A stretch of DNA of 64,000 bases from an uncultured Oscillospiraceae bacterium (GTDB taxonomy: Bacteria > Bacillota > Clostridia > Oscillospirales > Oscillospiraceae). The stretch lies in assembly GCA_934565655.1 (NCBI GenBank), contig CAKTIE010000006.1, positions 1-64,000 on the forward strand. Direction: 5' to 3'. Of this stretch, positions 58,773 to 64,000 are shown piece after piece. Made by a program: the position numbers and the translations under genes. The notes beneath the pieces are model-generated. The model had not been told where the DNA came from. It did no database searches and saw nothing but the letters and a program-made list of their open reading frames with translations. Within the stretch, counting starts at the first letter, position 1; every line of letters begins with the position of its first letter.

Positions 58773-59438
58773 ATGAATATCGCCCTTTTCTACGCCATGC
58801 CGTCGGAGATCGACAGCCTCATCCACGGGGCCGCGCCTATGGAGACGGTACACGGCGTGTCCTTTTACCGCATCCGGCCCAACGTGATCGCCTGCTGCGG
58901 CGGCGTGGGCAAGGTGAACGCCGCCATGGCCGCCGCGGTGCTGATTGAGCGCTATCACCCCGATCTGATCCTCAACGCCGGTGTGGCGGGTTGCTTTGAG
59001 GAGGTTCCCATCGGCACGCTGGTGCTGGCGGAAAAGTTTATCCAGCACGATGTGGACACCACCGGCGTGGGCGACCCCATCGGACTGGTCTCCACCGTCA
59101 ACCGGGTAGACTTCCCCACCGCCGACTTTGCCAGAACCAGGGCCGCCATGGATAAGACCGGCTATCCCTACCGCACCGGCACCGTGGCCACCGGCGACTG
59201 GTTCGGCATCCCCGGCAGCCGCGCCGACTGGGTACGGGACACCTTCCACCCGCTGCTGTGCGAGATGGAGGGCGGCGCCGTGGCCCAGGTGTGCTATCGC
59301 TGCGGCGTGCCCTTTATGGCGCTGAAATCCGTGTCCGACTGCCTGACCAGCAGGCACGACTATAACTTTAATTTCCCCACCGCCATGCGGGATCTGAACG
59401 CCGCCGTCATGGCCCTGGTGGATCATCTGGAGGACTGA
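58773..59438 (+). CDS. mtnN: 5'-methylthioadenosine/S-adenosylhomocysteine nucleosidase
   Basis: 221 aa. It removes adenine from SAH and MTA. Catalytic Glu12 is in FYAMPSEIDS; NAGVAGCFEEVPIGTLV, DTTGVGDPIG, and LCEMEGGAVAQVCYRCGVPF (purine/ribose site) follow, with the catalytic Asp in LKSVSDCL. CGAAACGAGG precedes the ATG. It produces S-ribosylhomocysteine for LuxS, whose gene begins four bases later. The two steps recycle SAM by-products. Confidence 0.95.
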   Translation: MNIALFYAMPSEIDSLIHGAAPMETVHGVSFYRIRPNVIACCGGVGKVNAAMAAAVLIERYHPDLILNAGVAGCFEEVPIGTLVLAEKFIQHDVDTTGVGDPIGLVSTVNRVDFPTADFARTRAAMDKTGYPYRTGTVATGDWFGIPGSRADWVRDTFHPLLCEMEGGAVAQVCYRCGVPFMALKSVSDCLTSRHDYNFNFPTAMRDLNAAVMALVDHLED

Positions 59439-59441
59439 ACC

Positions 59442-59906
59442 ATGGAACGTATCGCAAGCTTTACCGTGAACCATGACGTGCTGACGCCGGGGCTGTATCT
59501 CAGCCGCCGTGACGGCAGCGTCACCACCTTTGACCTGCGCTTCAAGAAGCCCAACACCGGCGACCTGCTGACCAACGCCCAGATGCACTCGGTGGAGCAC
59601 ATCATCGCCACCGCCCTGCGCAACAGCGAGCAGAAGGATGCGGTCATCTACTTCGGCCCCATGGGCTGTCAGACCGGCTTCTATTTCCTGTTTGACAGCG
59701 CACAGCTCACCGACGCGCAGGCCATCGACCTGCTGCGTCAGGCATTCGCCCAGGGCGCGGCGTGGGAAGGCCCCATGCCCGGCAAGGCCTCCCGGGAGTG
59801 CGGAAATTATGTCAACCTCGACGTAGCGCTGGCAAGGGAGTGCTGCGCGTTTTACGCCGGTATTCTGGACGGCTGGACGGCGGAAAAGCTGGTCTATCCG
59901 GAGTAA
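59442..59906 (+). CDS. luxS: S-ribosylhomocysteine lyase
   Basis: 154 aa. It splits S-ribosylhomocysteine into homocysteine and DPD, the precursor of AI-2. The metal site is in MHSVEHIIAT (His49 and His53, catalytic Glu52) and the later Cys of SRECGNYV; FGPMGCQTGFYFL contains the catalytic Cys76. Forms an operon with mtnN. An AI-2E-family permease lies 52 kb away in this window, but there is no sign of a link in regulation. Confidence 0.97.
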   Translation: MERIASFTVNHDVLTPGLYLSRRDGSVTTFDLRFKKPNTGDLLTNAQMHSVEHIIATALRNSEQKDAVIYFGPMGCQTGFYFLFDSAQLTDAQAIDLLRQAFAQGAAWEGPMPGKASRECGNYVNLDVALARECCAFYAGILDGWTAEKLVYPE

Positions 59907-59948
59907 GGGAGAAAGTCTGTTTTTTCGCAAAAAATCCCGGTATTTCTG

Positions 59949-59977
59949 TTGACAAAGGGATTTCCCGCTGTTATACT
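59949..59977 (+). promoter_or_regulatory. Promoter of rplU-prp-rpmA
   Basis: TTGACA (59949-59954), 17 bp, TATACT (59972-59977), consensus sigma-A. Confidence 0.9.
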
Positions 59978-59983
59978 AGTAAA

Positions 59984-60071
59984 GCCGCTTTGAATGGGTC
60001 AAAAGTTTTGGCTTTCGCCAAACGCCCCCGACAGCGAGTCCGTAATAAAGGAAAGGCAGGTGCAACAAGTA
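59984..60071 (+). promoter_or_regulatory. Leader of the rplU operon, L21-leader candidate
   Basis: An 88-nt 5' region with GCCGCTTTGAATGGGT, a TTTGGC-TTTC-GCCAAA hairpin (60005-60021) and a purine tract before the start. An L21 autoregulatory leader is known upstream of rplU in Firmicutes; I cannot confirm the match by eye. Confidence 0.4.
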
Positions 60072-60383
60072 ATGCAGGCTATTATCGTGACCGGTGGTAA
60101 GCAGTACGCCGTCTCTGAGGGCGACACTCTGTTTATCGAAAAGCTGGACGCCGAGGCTGGCGCTTCCGTGGTGTTTGACCAGGTGCTGGCGATCGTGGAC
60201 GGCGAGAACACCAAGTTCGGCACTCCCGTGGTGGAGGGCGCGAAGGTGGACGCCACCATCGTGAAGAACGGCAAGGGCAAGAAGATCCGTATCTTCAAGT
60301 ACACCCCCAAGAAGGGTTACCGCAAACGTCAGGGCCATCGTCAGCCCTACACCAAGGTCGAGATCGGCAAGATCAGCTTCTAA
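60072..60383 (+). CDS. rplU: 50S ribosomal protein L21
   Basis: 103 aa. [20 protein letters not shown] is the canonical start, and the C-terminus [20 protein letters not shown] is the L21 signature. First gene of the rplU-prp-rpmA operon. ATG 60072 is the first codon consistent with family length; the open frame upstream covers the leader. Confidence 0.97.
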
Positions 60384-60392
60384 GGTGACAGC

Positions 60393-60722
60393 ATGACGAG
60401 CGTCATTTTCCACACCGTGGAAGACCGCATCATCGGATTTGATGCACAGGGACACAGCGGATACGGCGAAGAGGGCGAGGATATCGTCTGCGCCGCCGTG
60501 ACCAGCGCCGTGCGGCTGGTGGAAGCCACCGTCAACGACGTGATGGGGCTGTGCGCCTCGGTGAAGGTCGATCAGGAGACCGCCGCCATCTCGCTCCGGC
60601 TGCCCGGAGGACTGGCGCCCACAGCGGAGTCCACCTGTCAGAATCTCATGACGGGACTGATGGTCTATCTGGCTCAGCTTCACGACGAATATCCGGAAAA
60701 CATCGAAGTGATGGAGGCGTAA
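60393..60722 (+). CDS. prp: Ribosomal-processing cysteine protease Prp
   Basis: 109 aa. Catalytic His21 is in AQGHSGYGEEGEDI and Cys33 in IVCAAVTSAVRL. Prp (formerly YsxB) removes the N-terminal extension of L27, which is needed for ribosome function in Firmicutes. The substrate gene rpmA follows after 43 bp and encodes the matching extension. Operon position between rplU and rpmA is conserved. Confidence 0.95.
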   Translation: MTSVIFHTVEDRIIGFDAQGHSGYGEEGEDIVCAAVTSAVRLVEATVNDVMGLCASVKVDQETAAISLRLPGGLAPTAESTCQNLMTGLMVYLAQLHDEYPENIEVMEA

Positions 60723-60765
60723 GTCTCTCTCCTTCCGTATCTTTTAGAAAGGATGGTACTGCGAA

Positions 60766-61047
60766 ATGTTGCACATTGGTCTGCAGTTCTTCGCCCATAA
60801 AAAAGGTATGGGCTCCACCAAGAACGGCCGCGACTCCGAGTCCAAGCGCCTTGGCCCCAAGCGCGCTGACGGTCAGTTCGTTCTGGCTGGCAACATCCTT
60901 GTTCGCCAGCGCGGCACCCACATTCACCCCGGCACCAACGTGGGCAAGGGTACCGACGACACCCTGTTCGCCAAGGCTGACGGCGTTGTCCGCTTTGAGC
61001 GTCTGGGCAAGGATCGTAAGCAGGTTTCTGTTTACCCCGCCGAGTAA
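60766..61047 (+). CDS. rpmA: 50S ribosomal protein L27
   Basis: 93 aa. The N-terminus MLHIGLQFF directly before [15 protein letters not shown] is the Prp cleavage extension (cut after LQFF). The body [19 protein letters not shown] is typical of L27, whose mature tail reaches the peptidyl-transferase centre. AGAAAGGATGG precedes the ATG. Followed by a strong terminator. Confidence 0.97.
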
Positions 61048-61060
61048 TTTTGTCTTGATC

Positions 61061-61095
61061 AAAAACACGCCTGCCGCACGGCAGGCGTGTTTTTT
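61061..61095 (+). terminator. Terminator of the rplU operon
   Basis: AAAAACACGCCTGCC-GCAC-GGCAGGCGTGTTTTT, 13 bp after rpmA. Confidence 0.95.
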
Positions 61096-61109
61096 GCTGC
61101 GGACGCATA

Positions 61110-61138
61110 TTGACAAAATACGCCGCATATGATACGCT
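61110..61138 (+). promoter_or_regulatory. Promoter of the 26-codon ORF
   Basis: TTGACA (61110-61115), 17 bp, TACGCT (61133-61138). Start expected near 61145. Confidence 0.7.
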
Positions 61139-61180
61139 TGTTCGTGCAAGGGTATCTTACATAGCGGGGCGGTTTTGATC

Positions 61181-61205
61181 CTATCCCTCCGAAAGGAGGT
61201 GATAG
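61181..61205 (+). promoter_or_regulatory. Shine-Dalgarno-sequestering hairpin
   Basis: CTATCCCTCC-GAAA-GGAGGTGATAG: ten base pairs with a single bulged T (61200) and a GNRA tetraloop. The whole GGAGG of the 26-codon ORF lies in the right arm, so translation requires opening of this stem. Confidence 0.75.
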
Positions 61206-61206
61206 C

Positions 61207-61287
61207 TTGAGAATTACTTTCCATATAGGCAACTTTACGGTTACCATTATTATCAAGGAAAGAAAAAACCGCCACTCTGCCAAGTGA
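61207..61287 (+). CDS. 26-aa peptide, candidate type I toxin
   Basis: TTG start 61207, stop TGA 61285-61287, preceded by AAAGGAGGTGAT. The peptide has a hydrophobic/aromatic part of 17 residues (ITFHIGNFTVTIII) and a basic tail (KERKNRHSAK), the layout of many type I toxins and small membrane-active peptides. It has its own promoter, an SD-hiding hairpin and a terminator that overlaps the last codons. A convergent promoter yields a partner RNA (61262-61349). I do not recognise a named family. Function as toxin is inferred from the layout only; a leader peptide or other small protein is the alternative. Confidence 0.6.
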   Translation: MRITFHIGNFTVTIIIKERKNRHSAK

Positions 61288-61297
61288 CGGTTTTCTT
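61262..61297. terminator. Shared bidirectional terminator
   Basis: AAAACCG-C-CACT / AGTG-A-CGGTTTT with a 6-nt loop; T-rich on both sides (TTTTCTTCTT on plus, TTTTTTCTTTC on minus). It holds the last codons and stop of the peptide gene. Confidence 0.75.
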
Positions 61298-61349
61298 CTT
61301 AGAAAAATAGTCATGTAACAGGGATCAAACCGCTCTGCTTGATACCCTT
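61262..61349 (-). ncRNA. Convergent antisense RNA, candidate antitoxin
   Basis: Predicted to start near 61349 and stop at the shared terminator. Its 5' end folds into GGGTATCAA / TTTGATCCC (61347-61321). The 3' part is fully complementary to the end of the peptide mRNA. Its first 30 nt (GCAAGGGTATC..AGCGG..TTTGATCC) are nearly identical to the 5' end of the peptide mRNA, so both RNAs share a leader sequence. Confidence 0.55.
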
Positions 61350-61355
61350 GCTTTT

Positions 61356-61383
61356 ATTATACCCATTTTAAGTCGGTTGTCAA
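61356..61383 (-). promoter_or_regulatory. Promoter of the antisense RNA
   Basis: Minus strand: TTGACA (61383-61378), 16 bp, TATAAT (61361-61356). A perfect match in both hexamers, and stronger than the promoter of the peptide gene. Confidence 0.85.
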
Positions 61384-61404
61384 GTCCGACATATCCTCCC
61401 CCAC

Positions 61405-61433
61405 TTGACGTACCCGCAAATTTCCGCTAAAAT
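61405..61433 (+). promoter_or_regulatory. Promoter of obgE
   Basis: TTGACG (61405-61410), 17 bp, TAAAAT (61428-61433). Confidence 0.75.
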
Positions 61434-61485
61434 AGGATATACTAGGTGTAAAAGGCACATTTTTCAGATAAAACGAGGTAACACA

Positions 61486-62766
61486 ATGGCAAACGGATTC
61501 ATCGACAAGGCTCGCATCACCTGCCGCGCCGGCAACGGCGGCAACGGTGCGGTGGCCTTCCATCGGGAGAAATACATTGCCGCCGGCGGCCCGGACGGCG
61601 GCGACGGCGGCGACGGCGGCTCCATCATTCTGAAGGTGGACGACAACATGTCCACCCTGATGGACTTCCGCTACAAGCGCAAATATGTGGCGTCCAACGG
61701 CGTGGACGGTCAGGGCGGCCGCAAGTCCGGCAAGGACGGCCAGAGCCTCACCATCCGCGTCCCCCGGGGCACACTGGTGCGGGACGCCGAGACCGGCGAG
61801 ATCATCAAGGACATGTCCGACGACCAGCCCTATGTGCTGTGCAAGGGCGGCCGGGGCGGCTGGGGCAACCAGCACTTCGCCACCCCCACCCGTCAGGTGC
61901 CCCGCTTCGCCAAGGCGGGCCTGCCCGGCGAGAGCCACGACGTGGTGCTGGAGCTGAAGCTTCTGGCGGACGTGGGTCTGGTGGGCTTCCCCAATGTGGG
62001 CAAATCCACGCTGCTGAGCGTAGTCACCAAGGCCCATCCCAAGATCGCCAACTATCACTTCACCACCCTGTACCCCAATCTGGGCGTGGTATATGTGGAC
62101 GAGGGCGTCAGCTTCGTCATGGCCGACATTCCCGGCATCATTGAGGGCGCCAGCGAGGGCGCGGGTCTGGGCCACGATTTCCTGCGGCACATCGACCGCT
62201 GCCGTCTGCTGGTGCATCTGGTGGACGTTTCCGGCAGCGAGGGCCGCGACCCCATCGCGGATTTCGATGCCATCAACGCCGAGCTGAAGGAGTACAGCCC
62301 CGAGCTGGCTACCCGTCCCCAGATCGCCGTGGCCAACAAGACCGACCTTCTGATGGACGAGGAGCAGCTGGACGCCTTCCGCGCCCATGTGGAGGCGCTG
62401 GGCTACGAGTTCTTCGCCATGTCCGCCGCCACCCATCAGGGCACCCGCGAGCTGGTGCGGCACATCGCCCAGCGACTCAGCGAGCTGCCGCCGGTAACGG
62501 TGTACGAGCCGGAGTATGTGCCCCGCCCGCCCCAGATCGACACCTCCGAGCCGCTGGAGATCCACCGGGAGGACGACACATGGCTGGTGGAGGGCCCGTG
62601 GCTGCAAAGGCTCATGGCCAACATCAACTTCTCCGACTACGAAAGCCGGATGTATTTCGACAAAATGCTGCGCCAGAGCGGCCTGTTCGACCGGCTGGAG
62701 CAGATGGGGATCCAGGACGGTCACATCGTCAGCATGTACGATCTGGAATTCGAGTACCAGCGCTGA
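61486..62766 (+). CDS. obgE: GTPase Obg/CgtA
   Basis: 426-aa ribosome-assembly GTPase. The Gly-rich Obg fold (about 1-158) includes CRAGNGGNGAVAFHREKY; the G domain has GFPNVGKSTLLS (G1), ADIPGIIEGAS (G3) and VANKTDL (G4). The C-terminal OCT domain (about 340-426) with WLVEGPWLQRLMAN is present, as in Gram-positive Obg. Position after rpmA is classical. GAGGT precedes the ATG at 61486. The TA-like locus is inserted between rpmA and obgE. Confidence 0.96.
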   Translation: MANGFIDKARITCRAGNGGNGAVAFHREKYIAAGGPDGGDGGDGGSIILKVDDNMSTLMDFRYKRKYVASNGVDGQGGRKSGKDGQSLTIRVPRGTLVRDAETGEIIKDMSDDQPYVLCKGGRGGWGNQHFATPTRQVPRFAKAGLPGESHDVVLELKLLADVGLVGFPNVGKSTLLSVVTKAHPKIANYHFTTLYPNLGVVYVDEGVSFVMADIPGIIEGASEGAGLGHDFLRHIDRCRLLVHLVDVSGSEGRDPIADFDAINAELKEYSPELATRPQIAVANKTDLLMDEEQLDAFRAHVEALGYEFFAMSAATHQGTRELVRHIAQRLSELPPVTVYEPEYVPRPPQIDTSEPLEIHREDDTWLVEGPWLQRLMANINFSDYESRMYFDKMLRQSGLFDRLEQMGIQDGHIVSMYDLEFEYQR

Positions 62767-62778
62767 CCGCATAAACGA

Positions 62779-62816
62779 CACCCCCGCCGCGCACACTAGC
62801 GGCGGAGGTGTTTTTT
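62779..62816 (+). terminator. Terminator-like hairpin containing a Shine-Dalgarno
   Basis: ACACCCCCGCCGC / GCGGCGGAGGTGT then TTTTTT. It should terminate obgE, yet the GGAGG of the next small ORF is in its right arm and the T-tract leads to the ATG. Confidence 0.7.
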
Positions 62817-62996
62817 ATGAAGTATGCCATTGATCTTACCGATCTGCTCAACAACGATCCCCAGGCGTATACCTATTTCTACGCCCTGCCCGCCCAGACC
62901 CAGACCGACCTGCGCAAGCGGGACATCCGCAGCATGGAGGAGCTGAAGGCCGCCACAGCGGATCTGGCCTATGCCGACCGCCCGGACGTGTTTTAA
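62817..62996 (+). CDS. 59-aa hypothetical protein
   Basis: Small soluble protein, not assigned. YAIDLTDLLNNDPQAYTYFY, LPAQTQTDLRKRDIRSMEEL and the DRPDVF end suggest a helical protein. GGAGGTGTTTTTT precedes the ATG, within a terminator-type hairpin, so expression is probably low or conditional. A GTG at 62808 is too close to the site. Followed by a bidirectional terminator. Confidence 0.65.
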   Translation: MKYAIDLTDLLNNDPQAYTYFYALPAQTQTDLRKRDIRSMEELKAATADLAYADRPDVF

Positions 62997-63005
62997 GACA
63001 AGCAT

Positions 63006-63042
63006 AAAAATTGACCGCCTTCACAGGCGGTCAATTTTTATA
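63006..63042. terminator. Bidirectional terminator
   Basis: AAAAATTGACCGCC-TTCACA-GGCGGTCAATTTTT between the 59-aa ORF and the ABC ATPase gene. Confidence 0.92.
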
Positions 63043-63051
63043 TAAGAAGTG

Positions 63052-64000
63052 TTACCACTCCAGGTTCTTTTCGGTTTCCTTGCTGAACACATGGGCCACG
63101 TTGCCGCCGAAGATCATGTTGACCTCGCTGCCCATGGGGAAGTGGGCGGCATTGCCGTTGGTGGGTACGATGACCACCACGTCCTTGTCGCCCGCGGTGA
63201 TGTGCAGATGCACGGAGGAGCCCATCAGCTCGCTGACGTCCACCTTGCCCTTGACGCCGTCGGCGCACAGCATGATATGGTCGGGGCGGACGCCCAGCAC
63301 CACATCCTGCTCGGGGACGTTTTTGGCGCTCAGGCGCTGCTGCTTATCCTCGGCCAGCTCCACCACAATGTTATCAACAGCCACGGCATACTTGCCGTTC
63401 TGCTTCACCAGCTTGGCGTCAAACAGGTTCATCTGCGGCGTGCCGATAAAACCGGCCACGAACAGGTTGGCGGGATGGTCAAAGACCTCCTGCGGCGTGC
63501 CGATCTGCTGGATGAAGCCATCCTTCATAATGACGATACGGTCGCCCAGAGTCATGGCCTCGGTCTGGTCATGGGTGACGTAAATAAACGTGGTGTCGAT
63601 CCGCTGGCGCAGCTTGATGATCTCGGCGCGCATCTGGTTGCGCAGCTTGGCGTCCAAGTTGGACAGAGGCTCATCCATCAGGAACACGGAGGGATCGCGG
63701 ACGATGGCGCGGCCGATGGCCACACGCTGGCGCTGGCCGCCGGACAGGGCCTTGGGCTTACGATCCAGATACTGGGTGATGTCCAGGATCTCCGCCGCCT
63801 GCTTCACCTTCTTGTCGATCTCATCCTTAGGAACCTTCTTCAGCTTCAGGGAGAAGGCCATGTTCTCGTACACGGTCATGTGGGGATACAGGGCGTAGTT
63901 CTGGAACACCATGGCGATATCACGATCCTTGGGCTCCACATCGTTCATCAGCTTGTCACCGATCCACAGTTCGCCAGAGCTGATGTCCTCCAGGCCGGCG
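63052..64000 (-). CDS. ABC transporter ATP-binding protein (MsmK/UgpC type), 5' end outside window
   Basis: 316 codons are visible, and the N-terminus with the Walker A motif is beyond 64000. The Q-loop [20 protein letters not shown], signature [15 protein letters not shown], Walker [17 protein letters not shown] and H-loop [15 protein letters not shown] are complete. The C-terminal OB-fold (about the last 120 residues) with [11 protein letters not shown] is typical of carbohydrate-uptake CUT1 ATPases, which often serve several sugar transporters. The specific sugar cannot be read. No permease genes are in view. Confidence 0.93.

What the first reader, a model, noticed from the sequence alone, without database searches (positions are those of the whole stretch)
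61105..61385. Candidate type I toxin-antitoxin locus between rpmA and obgE
A 26-codon ORF with a basic tail has (i) its own promoter, (ii) a Shine-Dalgarno buried in a 10-bp GNRA-capped hairpin, (iii) a convergent, perfect-consensus promoter on the other strand, and (iv) one bidirectional terminator shared by both transcripts and overlapping the last codons. These are the defining traits of known type I loci (par/Fst, txpA-RatA, BsrG-SR4). The coding peptide is not one I recognise.
Basis: partly seen in the sequence, partly recalled or inferred. Interest (0 to 1): 0.85.

Follow-up and report, generated by a model that had tools for sequence, protein, structure and literature searches.

The report
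Mimic-leader toxin–antitoxin family in gut Clostridia
The 26-codon gene and its opposing small RNA belong to a large family of tiny toxin–antitoxin-like cassettes in gut Clostridia, in which the presumed antitoxin RNA copies the start of the toxin message instead of being its mirror image, and the same RNA frame can carry unrelated peptides.

Summary
In 207 unique loci a convergent promoter stands in 199 (shuffles 6). Shine-Dalgarno burial and strong synonymous bias in the peptide recur. It is a cassette: 18 relatives with rpmA beside obgE lack it there. Best reading: a type I-like toxin–antitoxin module with a new peptide family, modelled as a beta-hairpin with basic tail. Two features depart from the par/Fst model. 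(1) Toxin mRNA and antisense RNA share the SAME-sense 5' leader (inverted DNA repeats; z about 26), without co-evolved complementarity there; par repeats are direct and its RNAs complementary. The match is locus-specific even among paralogues. (2) In one genome the same RNA frame carries an unrelated transmembrane-type peptide (13 copies), and toxin-less RNA II copies exist. Toxicity, transcription and the pairing mechanism are untested.

The parts
61110..61138 (+). Putative weak promoter of toxin mRNA (RNA I): TTGACA 61110-61115, 17 nt, TACGCT 61133-61138 after TG; TATGAT 61128-61133 is at a too short spacing of 12
61146..61181 (+). RNA I leader with arms GCAAGGGTATC (61146-61156) and GCGGTTTTGATCC (61169-61181), repeated in the same sense at the start of RNA II
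61181..61205 (+). GAAA-capped hairpin that buries the Shine-Dalgarno sequence GGAGG (61195-61199)
61207..61287 (+). ORF of 26 codons (TTG start), MRITFHIGNFTVTIIIKERKNRHSAK, putative toxin peptide; family member modelled as beta-hairpin plus tail
61263..61296 (.). Terminator hairpin shared by both transcripts (scan: minus strand; plus-strand tail by inspection); codon CGC of R22 leaves a C.A mismatch in the RNA I stem and G.U in the RNA II stem
61320..61351 (-). 5' leader hairpin of RNA II (arms 61339-61351 and 61321-61333), same sense as the RNA I leader
61258..61352 (-). Putative antitoxin RNA (RNA II), about 90 nt: 5' hairpin, linker, terminator; covariance model R1 match 67.9 bits, E 4e-14 (the model was built with this sequence among its 45)
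61356..61383 (-). Strong convergent promoter TTGACA-16-TATAAT (12 of 12) of RNA II

Best explanation
The region is a self-contained, spreading type I-like toxin-antitoxin cassette of about 280 bp. RNA I (163 nt as drawn for the window) encodes a small beta-hairpin peptide with a basic tail, the presumed toxin; its Shine-Dalgarno sequence is locked in a GAAA-capped hairpin. A convergent promoter, stronger by consensus, makes RNA II, about 90 nt: a 5' hairpin, a linker and the complement of the shared terminator. Inferred mechanism: the complementary terminators (about 43 nt overlap if the ends are as drawn; each hairpin alone holds a mismatch or wobble that becomes a normal pair in the duplex) start pairing; the two alike, self-complementary 5' leaders then exchange arms, giving locus-specific recognition at both ends, and the complex is not translated or is cut. 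Shown by sequence: cassette, conservation, selection on the peptide, SD burial, same-sense leader co-variation confined to transcribed sequence. Inferred: transcription, toxicity, arm exchange.
For: Convergent promoter in 129 of 132 pattern-found loci (shuffles 4) and 199 of 207 HMM-found loci (6; the sets overlap); its -10 is TATAAT in 95 of 132, the toxin's in 22 of 132. Peptide: third-position entropy 1.0-1.65 bits against 0-0.3 at positions 1-2 in codons 2, 3, 4 and 8, which the search pattern did not fix (88 ORFs). SD core unpaired probability 0.05 in 196 loci against 0.33 in 100 shuffled-leader controls. Leaders same-sense: own 12.71, permuted 8.49, best of 5000 permutations 8.99; and 0 of 10000 permutations within 21 genomes or tandem loci. 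Promoter spacers z 3.7 and 25 nt upstream z 0.7 against 26.5 for transcribed leaders (126 loci). RNA II hairpin arms co-vary (z 10.9). R22 codon CGC in 183 of 185 loci (22 of 207 without the motif left out), while R2 is CGC in 4 of 148. No family ORF between rpmA and obgE in 18 of 18 relatives. Same frame with transmembrane-type peptides. Copies in viral contigs, one between phage tail genes.
Against: No transcript or toxicity data. Arm exchange is not directly supported: leader complementarity of own pairs shows no clear excess (z 1.9), cofold gain is no better for own than foreign RNA II and worse than for shuffled RNA II (-3.9, -4.1, -5.9 kcal/mol), with only a modest excess of pairing-preserving changes (91 of 171 cells, 65.5 expected). 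Against the nearest relative the own leader match is better in 80, equal in 21, worse in 31 of 132. The modelled beta-hairpin is unlike the membrane helix usual in type I toxins (recalled). The window's toxin promoter is weak, and RNA I tails are T-rich in only 74 of 190. 8 of 207 loci lack a convergent promoter at the cut-off. Presence is patchy: 10 of 295 order-wide, 5 of 398 phylum-wide, centre genome included.
Confidence: 0.8

Rival explanations
1. Decoy model: the shared leader hairpin is a binding site for a common host factor (RNA-binding protein, RNase or sRNA); RNA II titrates that factor away from the toxin mRNA rather than pairing with its leader.
For: Leaders are same-sense, not complementary; RNA I can form the same hairpin in 900 of 959 mapped pairs; the loop GACAA is the commonest, 42 of 128.
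Against: Arm sequences vary between loci and match best within a locus, even among paralogues of one genome; a common factor would favour one fixed sequence.
Confidence: 0.2
2. A par/Fst-type module in which RNA II is antisense to the toxin start site.
For: Convergent promoters, shared terminator, SD hairpin, two 5' repeats and, in several loci, an extra GC-rich 5' hairpin like the par upstream helix.
Against: Repeats are inverted, leaders alike in sense; complementarity of RNA II to leader, start region or ORF shows no own-locus excess (z -1.2 to 1.9). No Pfam or NCBIfam match of the peptide.
Confidence: 0.05
3. A MITE-like or other repeat element whose ends are inverted repeats; the matching leaders reflect terminal repeats or gene conversion, and the ORF is incidental.
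For: Multi-copy, patchy, sometimes tandem, on viral contigs and chromosomes; absent from the site in relatives; toxin-less copies exist.
Against: Matching fades outside the transcribed region: leaders z 26.5, promoter spacers 3.7, upstream 0.7. The peptide shows strong synonymous bias.
Confidence: 0.06
4. The peptide is not a toxin but a regulated effector, for example a signalling or antimicrobial beta-hairpin peptide, with the antisense RNA setting its dose.
For: Beta-hairpin model with basic tail; no known family.
Against: The same RNA frame carries hydrophobic transmembrane-type peptides in G010, which fits toxins; RNA II-only copies look like spare antitoxins. Flanking genes were not searched for export or processing functions.
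Confidence: 0.15

Closest known systems
par of pAD1 (Fst; RNA I and RNA II)
   Same: Convergent promoters, shared bidirectional terminator, SD sequestered in RNA I, repeats at both 5' ends (par features from passages of PMC7472228).
   Different: par repeats are direct on DNA and make the RNAs complementary; here they are inverted and make the leaders alike in sense. Peptide unrelated by family search; the terminator overlaps the coding end.
Clostridioides difficile CD2517.1-RCd8, CD2907.1-RCd9, CD0956.2-RCd10
   Same: Convergent, overlapping toxin and antitoxin RNA genes in Clostridia (passages of PMC6563280).
   Different: Those toxins have 50-53 residues and share a long complementary region with the antitoxin; here mostly 25-30 residues and about 43 nt at the terminator.
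Ibs/Sib, TxpA-RatA, BsrG-SR4 (recalled, no call)
   Same: Very small toxins under antisense RNA control; the transmembrane-type peptides of G010 resemble Ibs in size and make-up.
   Different: The peptide matched no curated family; I made no direct comparison with these systems.

Membership tests
Type I toxin-antitoxin (general) | Small peptide that is toxic when made | not testable with these tools
   Only conservation and architecture support it
Type I toxin-antitoxin (general) | Antitoxin is an RNA made from the opposite strand | tested here: inconclusive
   Convergent promoter in 199 of 207 loci and terminator hairpin; no transcript seen
Type I toxin-antitoxin (general) | Antitoxin RNA complementary to toxin mRNA | tested here: met
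   About 43 nt at the shared terminator if the ends are as drawn; no own-locus excess at the 5' leader
Type I toxin-antitoxin (general) | Toxin translation start held in RNA structure (frequent, not universal; recalled) | tested here: met
   SD unpaired probability 0.05 against 0.33 in control, by folding only
par/Fst | Fst-type hydrophobic peptide | tested here: not met
   No Pfam or NCBIfam match; beta-hairpin model of a family member
par/Fst | Convergent promoters | tested here: met
   (consensus matches)
par/Fst | Bidirectional terminator | tested here: inconclusive
   RNA II direction good (169 of 192 T-rich tails); RNA I direction weaker (74 of 190; not listed by the scan of the window)
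par/Fst | Direct repeats DRa/DRb giving complementary RNAs | tested here: not met
   Inverted repeats; same-sense z 25.7, complementary z 1.9; par definition
Rfam RNA families | Match above a family's gathering score | tested here: not met
   0 in 10 relative loci; window stretch 59000-63500: six sub-threshold matches, best E istR (an antitoxin RNA) 26.8 bits of 45 at 61051-61157, taken as chance

The most novel reading that the evidence does not exclude
A new class of RNA-controlled toxin module in which the antitoxin RNA is a locus-specific sense-strand mimic of the toxin mRNA's leader (recognised by arm exchange between two self-complementary hairpins, anchored at a shared terminator), and in which this RNA frame is a reusable chassis that has taken up structurally unrelated toxins (beta-hairpin and transmembrane helix) and sheds toxin-less antitoxin copies.
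Probability: 0.4. Interest if true: 0.88.

Novelty: new variant of a known kind. Interest (0 to 1): 0.74.

Why it matters
If toxic, this is a toxin family of gut Clostridia that matches no Pfam or NCBIfam model and whose RNA reached no Rfam gathering score in the loci tested, present in about a fifth of the genomes sampled from one Oscillibacter family. Its antitoxin would recognise its target through like rather than complementary leaders, a rule that I did not find described in the searches made, and one that natural variation (about 200 loci, paralogues side by side) makes directly testable. The same RNA frame carrying unrelated peptides would show that control and toxin evolve as separable parts.

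Tried and rejected
Whole-genome search of the window's own assembly: none is held. A first viral pattern anchored on the SD found nothing, as did a terminator pattern and a pattern for the transmembrane-type peptide. tblastn found no phage record, one plasmid record, and none in plasmids for the transmembrane-type peptide.

par-like complementarity of the leaders was tested in three ways and rejected. A long-distance pairing of leader GGCGGTT with terminator AACCGCC is possible in many loci but shows no co-variation (z 1.1). RNAalifold on the RNA II alignment recovered only the terminator, 13 pairs; the 5' hairpin rests on single-sequence folds and arm co-variation. Rows dropped before counts: of 154 pattern matches three (L071 false; L123 and the first match of L138 genuine peptides, cut off before or masked at the terminator), then 19 of 151 as duplicates or with short flanks; of 298 HMM hits 88 as duplicates, long ORFs or short flanks, then 3 of 210; 22 of 207 without the motif for the R22 count; near-identical copies in the paralogue test. 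The codon analysis over all codons is biased because the search pattern fixes positions; only unfixed codons are cited. L340 was a false HMM hit.

Full report
Observation. The stretch between rpmA (60766-61047) and obgE (from 61486) holds a 26-codon ORF, 61207-61287, with a TTG start. Its Shine-Dalgarno sequence GGAGG lies in the 3' arm of a GAAA-capped hairpin, 61181-61205, ten pairs with one bulged U. On the minus strand TTGACA-16-TATAAT (61383-61356) matches the consensus in 12 of 12 positions, and the hairpin 61263-61296 is listed as a terminator for that strand; for the plus strand the scan lists none there, and the tail CGGTTTTCTTCTT is my reading. The ORF's promoter is weaker than stated: TTGACA at 61110 is followed by TATGAT after only 12 nt, and the best -10 at 17 nt is TACGCT (9 of 12). 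The window holds one such locus; the RNA II model finds no other below E 0.17.

It is a family. tblastn of the 26-mer found one plasmid-collection record, an 861-kb replicon of Vescimonas fastidiosa, with four copies, two in tandem. A degenerate pattern of the peptide hit 16 viral contigs, all 16 with the peptide and most of the architecture by eye, though four are nearly identical to one another. A profile of 22 peptides (A1) at E below 1e-6 found the family in 54 of 250 genomes of one family (centre G009, an Oscillibacter-type genome), 7 of 200 of another (centre G006, Eisenbergiella), 10 of 295 order-wide and 5 of 398 phylum-wide, each count including its centre genome, which was chosen because it has the locus. 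Up to 8 copies per genome were listed. The peptide matches no Pfam or NCBIfam model and ten relative loci give no Rfam match at gathering score. None of five peptide strings occurs in the paper library.

The ORF is a gene. In 88 ORFs of equal length, codons 2, 3, 4 and 8, which the search pattern left free, show 1.0-1.65 bits of entropy at the third position and 0-0.3 at the first two; codons 9 and 15 vary more in the residue. The consensus of the 22 chosen peptides is MRITLHIGxFTVTIIVKxRNRHSAK. AlphaFold2 on a 31-row alignment gives two strands, residues 3-9 and 12-18, pLDDT 91 over residues 1-20, 62 in the tail, mean 81, pTM 0.37 (the modelled chain is L136, 30 residues, not the window's peptide). 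This is unlike the membrane helix of known type I toxins (recalled).

The control elements are conserved. Among 207 unique HMM-found loci with flanks, 199 have a convergent promoter scoring at least 10 (of 12, with a half point for spacing) within about 200 nt after the stop, against 6 shuffles; the toxin promoter reaches this in 131, against 3. In the first set the convergent -10 is TATAAT in 95 of 132 and the toxin's in 22 of 132. The SD core is unpaired with mean probability 0.05 in 196 loci (below 0.2 in 88%); with the leader shuffled 0.33 in 100 (27%). At least 7 T in the 12 bases after the stem core stand behind 169 of 192 RNA II and 74 of 190 RNA I, background 8.7%, so the terminator is better in the RNA II direction. 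Predicted RNA II is about 85-105 nt in most loci printed: a 5' hairpin, a linker and the terminator.

The leaders are alike, not complementary. RNA I leader and RNA II 5' end match in the same sense far better within a locus than between loci: z 25.7 (128 loci), and 12.71 against 8.49 with none of 5000 permutations as high (207 loci). To exclude kinship and base composition I compared copies within 21 genomes or tandem loci (55 copies, near-identical ones dropped): own 12.0, other copy 9.7; own above the best other copy in 32, tied in 11, below in 12; none of 10000 within-group permutations reached the total. The nearest-relative comparison is weaker: own better in 80, equal in 21, worse in 31 of 132. 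The match fades outside the transcripts: z 26.5 for leaders, 3.7 for promoter spacers, 0.7 upstream of -35 (126 loci), which speaks against plain terminal repeats or conversion of whole ends. The arms of the RNA II hairpin co-vary (z 10.9), while complementarity of the RNA I leader to either arm shows z about 1; cofold gains are no better for own than for foreign RNA II, and worse than for shuffled RNA II. In par of pAD1 the repeats are direct and the RNAs complementary (passages of PMC7472228). So the architecture resembles par, but the recognition rule differs. My proposal, arm exchange between two self-complementary hairpins, explains locus-specific likeness, and changes between the RNAs keep pairing somewhat more often than expected (91 of 171 cells, 65.5 expected), but that is weak and does not separate it from pairing within RNA I (double changes are too few, 4 of 1473 cells).

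A codon with a job. The arginine in the terminator stem is CGC in 183 of 185 loci, whereas arginine 2 is CGC in 4 of 148. CGC leaves a C.A mismatch in the RNA I stem and G.U in RNA II; in the window the RNA I hairpin has -13.4 kcal/mol instead of -18.5 with CGT, and the duplex gains about 8 kcal/mol relative to the two hairpins. I read this as keeping the toxin-mRNA hairpin ready to open or to pair with RNA II; this is inference.

One frame, several cargoes. A covariance model of RNA II gave 96 matches at E 0.01 in nine genomes or records. I examined 30 of them in 20 fetched stretches, chosen mainly because no toxin hit was known there: 7 lie beside the beta-type peptide by HMM (one, L338, a remnant by eye) and one more (L334) beside a diverged form below the cut-off; 10 lie beside a hydrophobic peptide such as MWKKVIIFIICFAVLVFMVSIKVY, all in G010; 4, also in G010, beside a third peptide, MLTYSKFFQFCLVVIGIINLVLQAKKK (by eye); and 8 have no toxin ORF. 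One Vescimonas copy, W01 309434-309531, also lacks one. In G010 there are 13 loci of the hydrophobic type; of 197 genomes searched only G010 and one false hit matched, so this cargo looks confined to one lineage. My script placed 12 of the 13, 11 of them distinct; all 11 have convergent promoters of 12 of 12, and the leader match is again better than permuted, though less strikingly (275 of 10000 reach it). A frame that carries both a transmembrane-type and a beta-hairpin peptide is most simply explained if both do a similar job, such as poisoning the cell.

Mobility. None of 25 relative obgE loci holds a family ORF; in 18 of them rpmA lies within about 1.1 kb of obgE, some with another gene between. 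So the window's copy looks like a gain between the rpmA terminator and the obgE promoter. In viral contig L017 the cassette lies between tape-measure and major tail protein genes, as an added gene would. Of ten proteins near five viral copies sent to PHROGs or Pfam, only those of L015 and L017 were phage-like; neighbours in L007 and L010 had no match and L019 has an MmeI-type methyltransferase, so phage carriage is shown for few.

Limits. No transcript, no toxicity and no structure probing. Promoter calls are consensus matches. The z values rest on related sequences; the within-genome permutation is the cleanest control. Literature searches cover only open-licence papers; listings were seen, plus passages of two reviews. 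I found no description of this family there, which is not proof of absence.

Noticed in passing
L034 and L113, RNA II 5' hairpin: The RNA II loop carries an AACCTCCTTT-like stretch resembling an anti-Shine-Dalgarno sequence, not seen in the other loci printed beside them.
   Followed up: no
L249-L255, L333-L335 (one genome, G849): Eight copies by HMM and three more found through RNA II in one genome, some with a long lysine/alanine-rich tail (for example MRLTFHIKKWTVTIIVSETSKKAKAKNAKKAAATPDK) and different leaders.
   Followed up: partly
several loci, just downstream of the toxin promoter: An extra GC-rich hairpin such as CCCCGAAAGGGG opens RNA I in several copies printed, like the stabilising upstream helix of par; the window copy lacks it.
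   Followed up: no
L328-L330, L332, L336, L337, second sites in L326 and L327, L001: RNA II copies without a toxin ORF, some still with promoter-like sequence by eye: possible spare antitoxins or remnants; L332 may be degenerate.
   Followed up: partly
L017:5290-5328: Cassette between phage tape-measure and major tail protein genes in a viral contig.
   Followed up: partly
window 61061-61094: Perfect 16-bp inverted repeat behind rpmA, an ordinary terminator-like hairpin.
   Followed up: no
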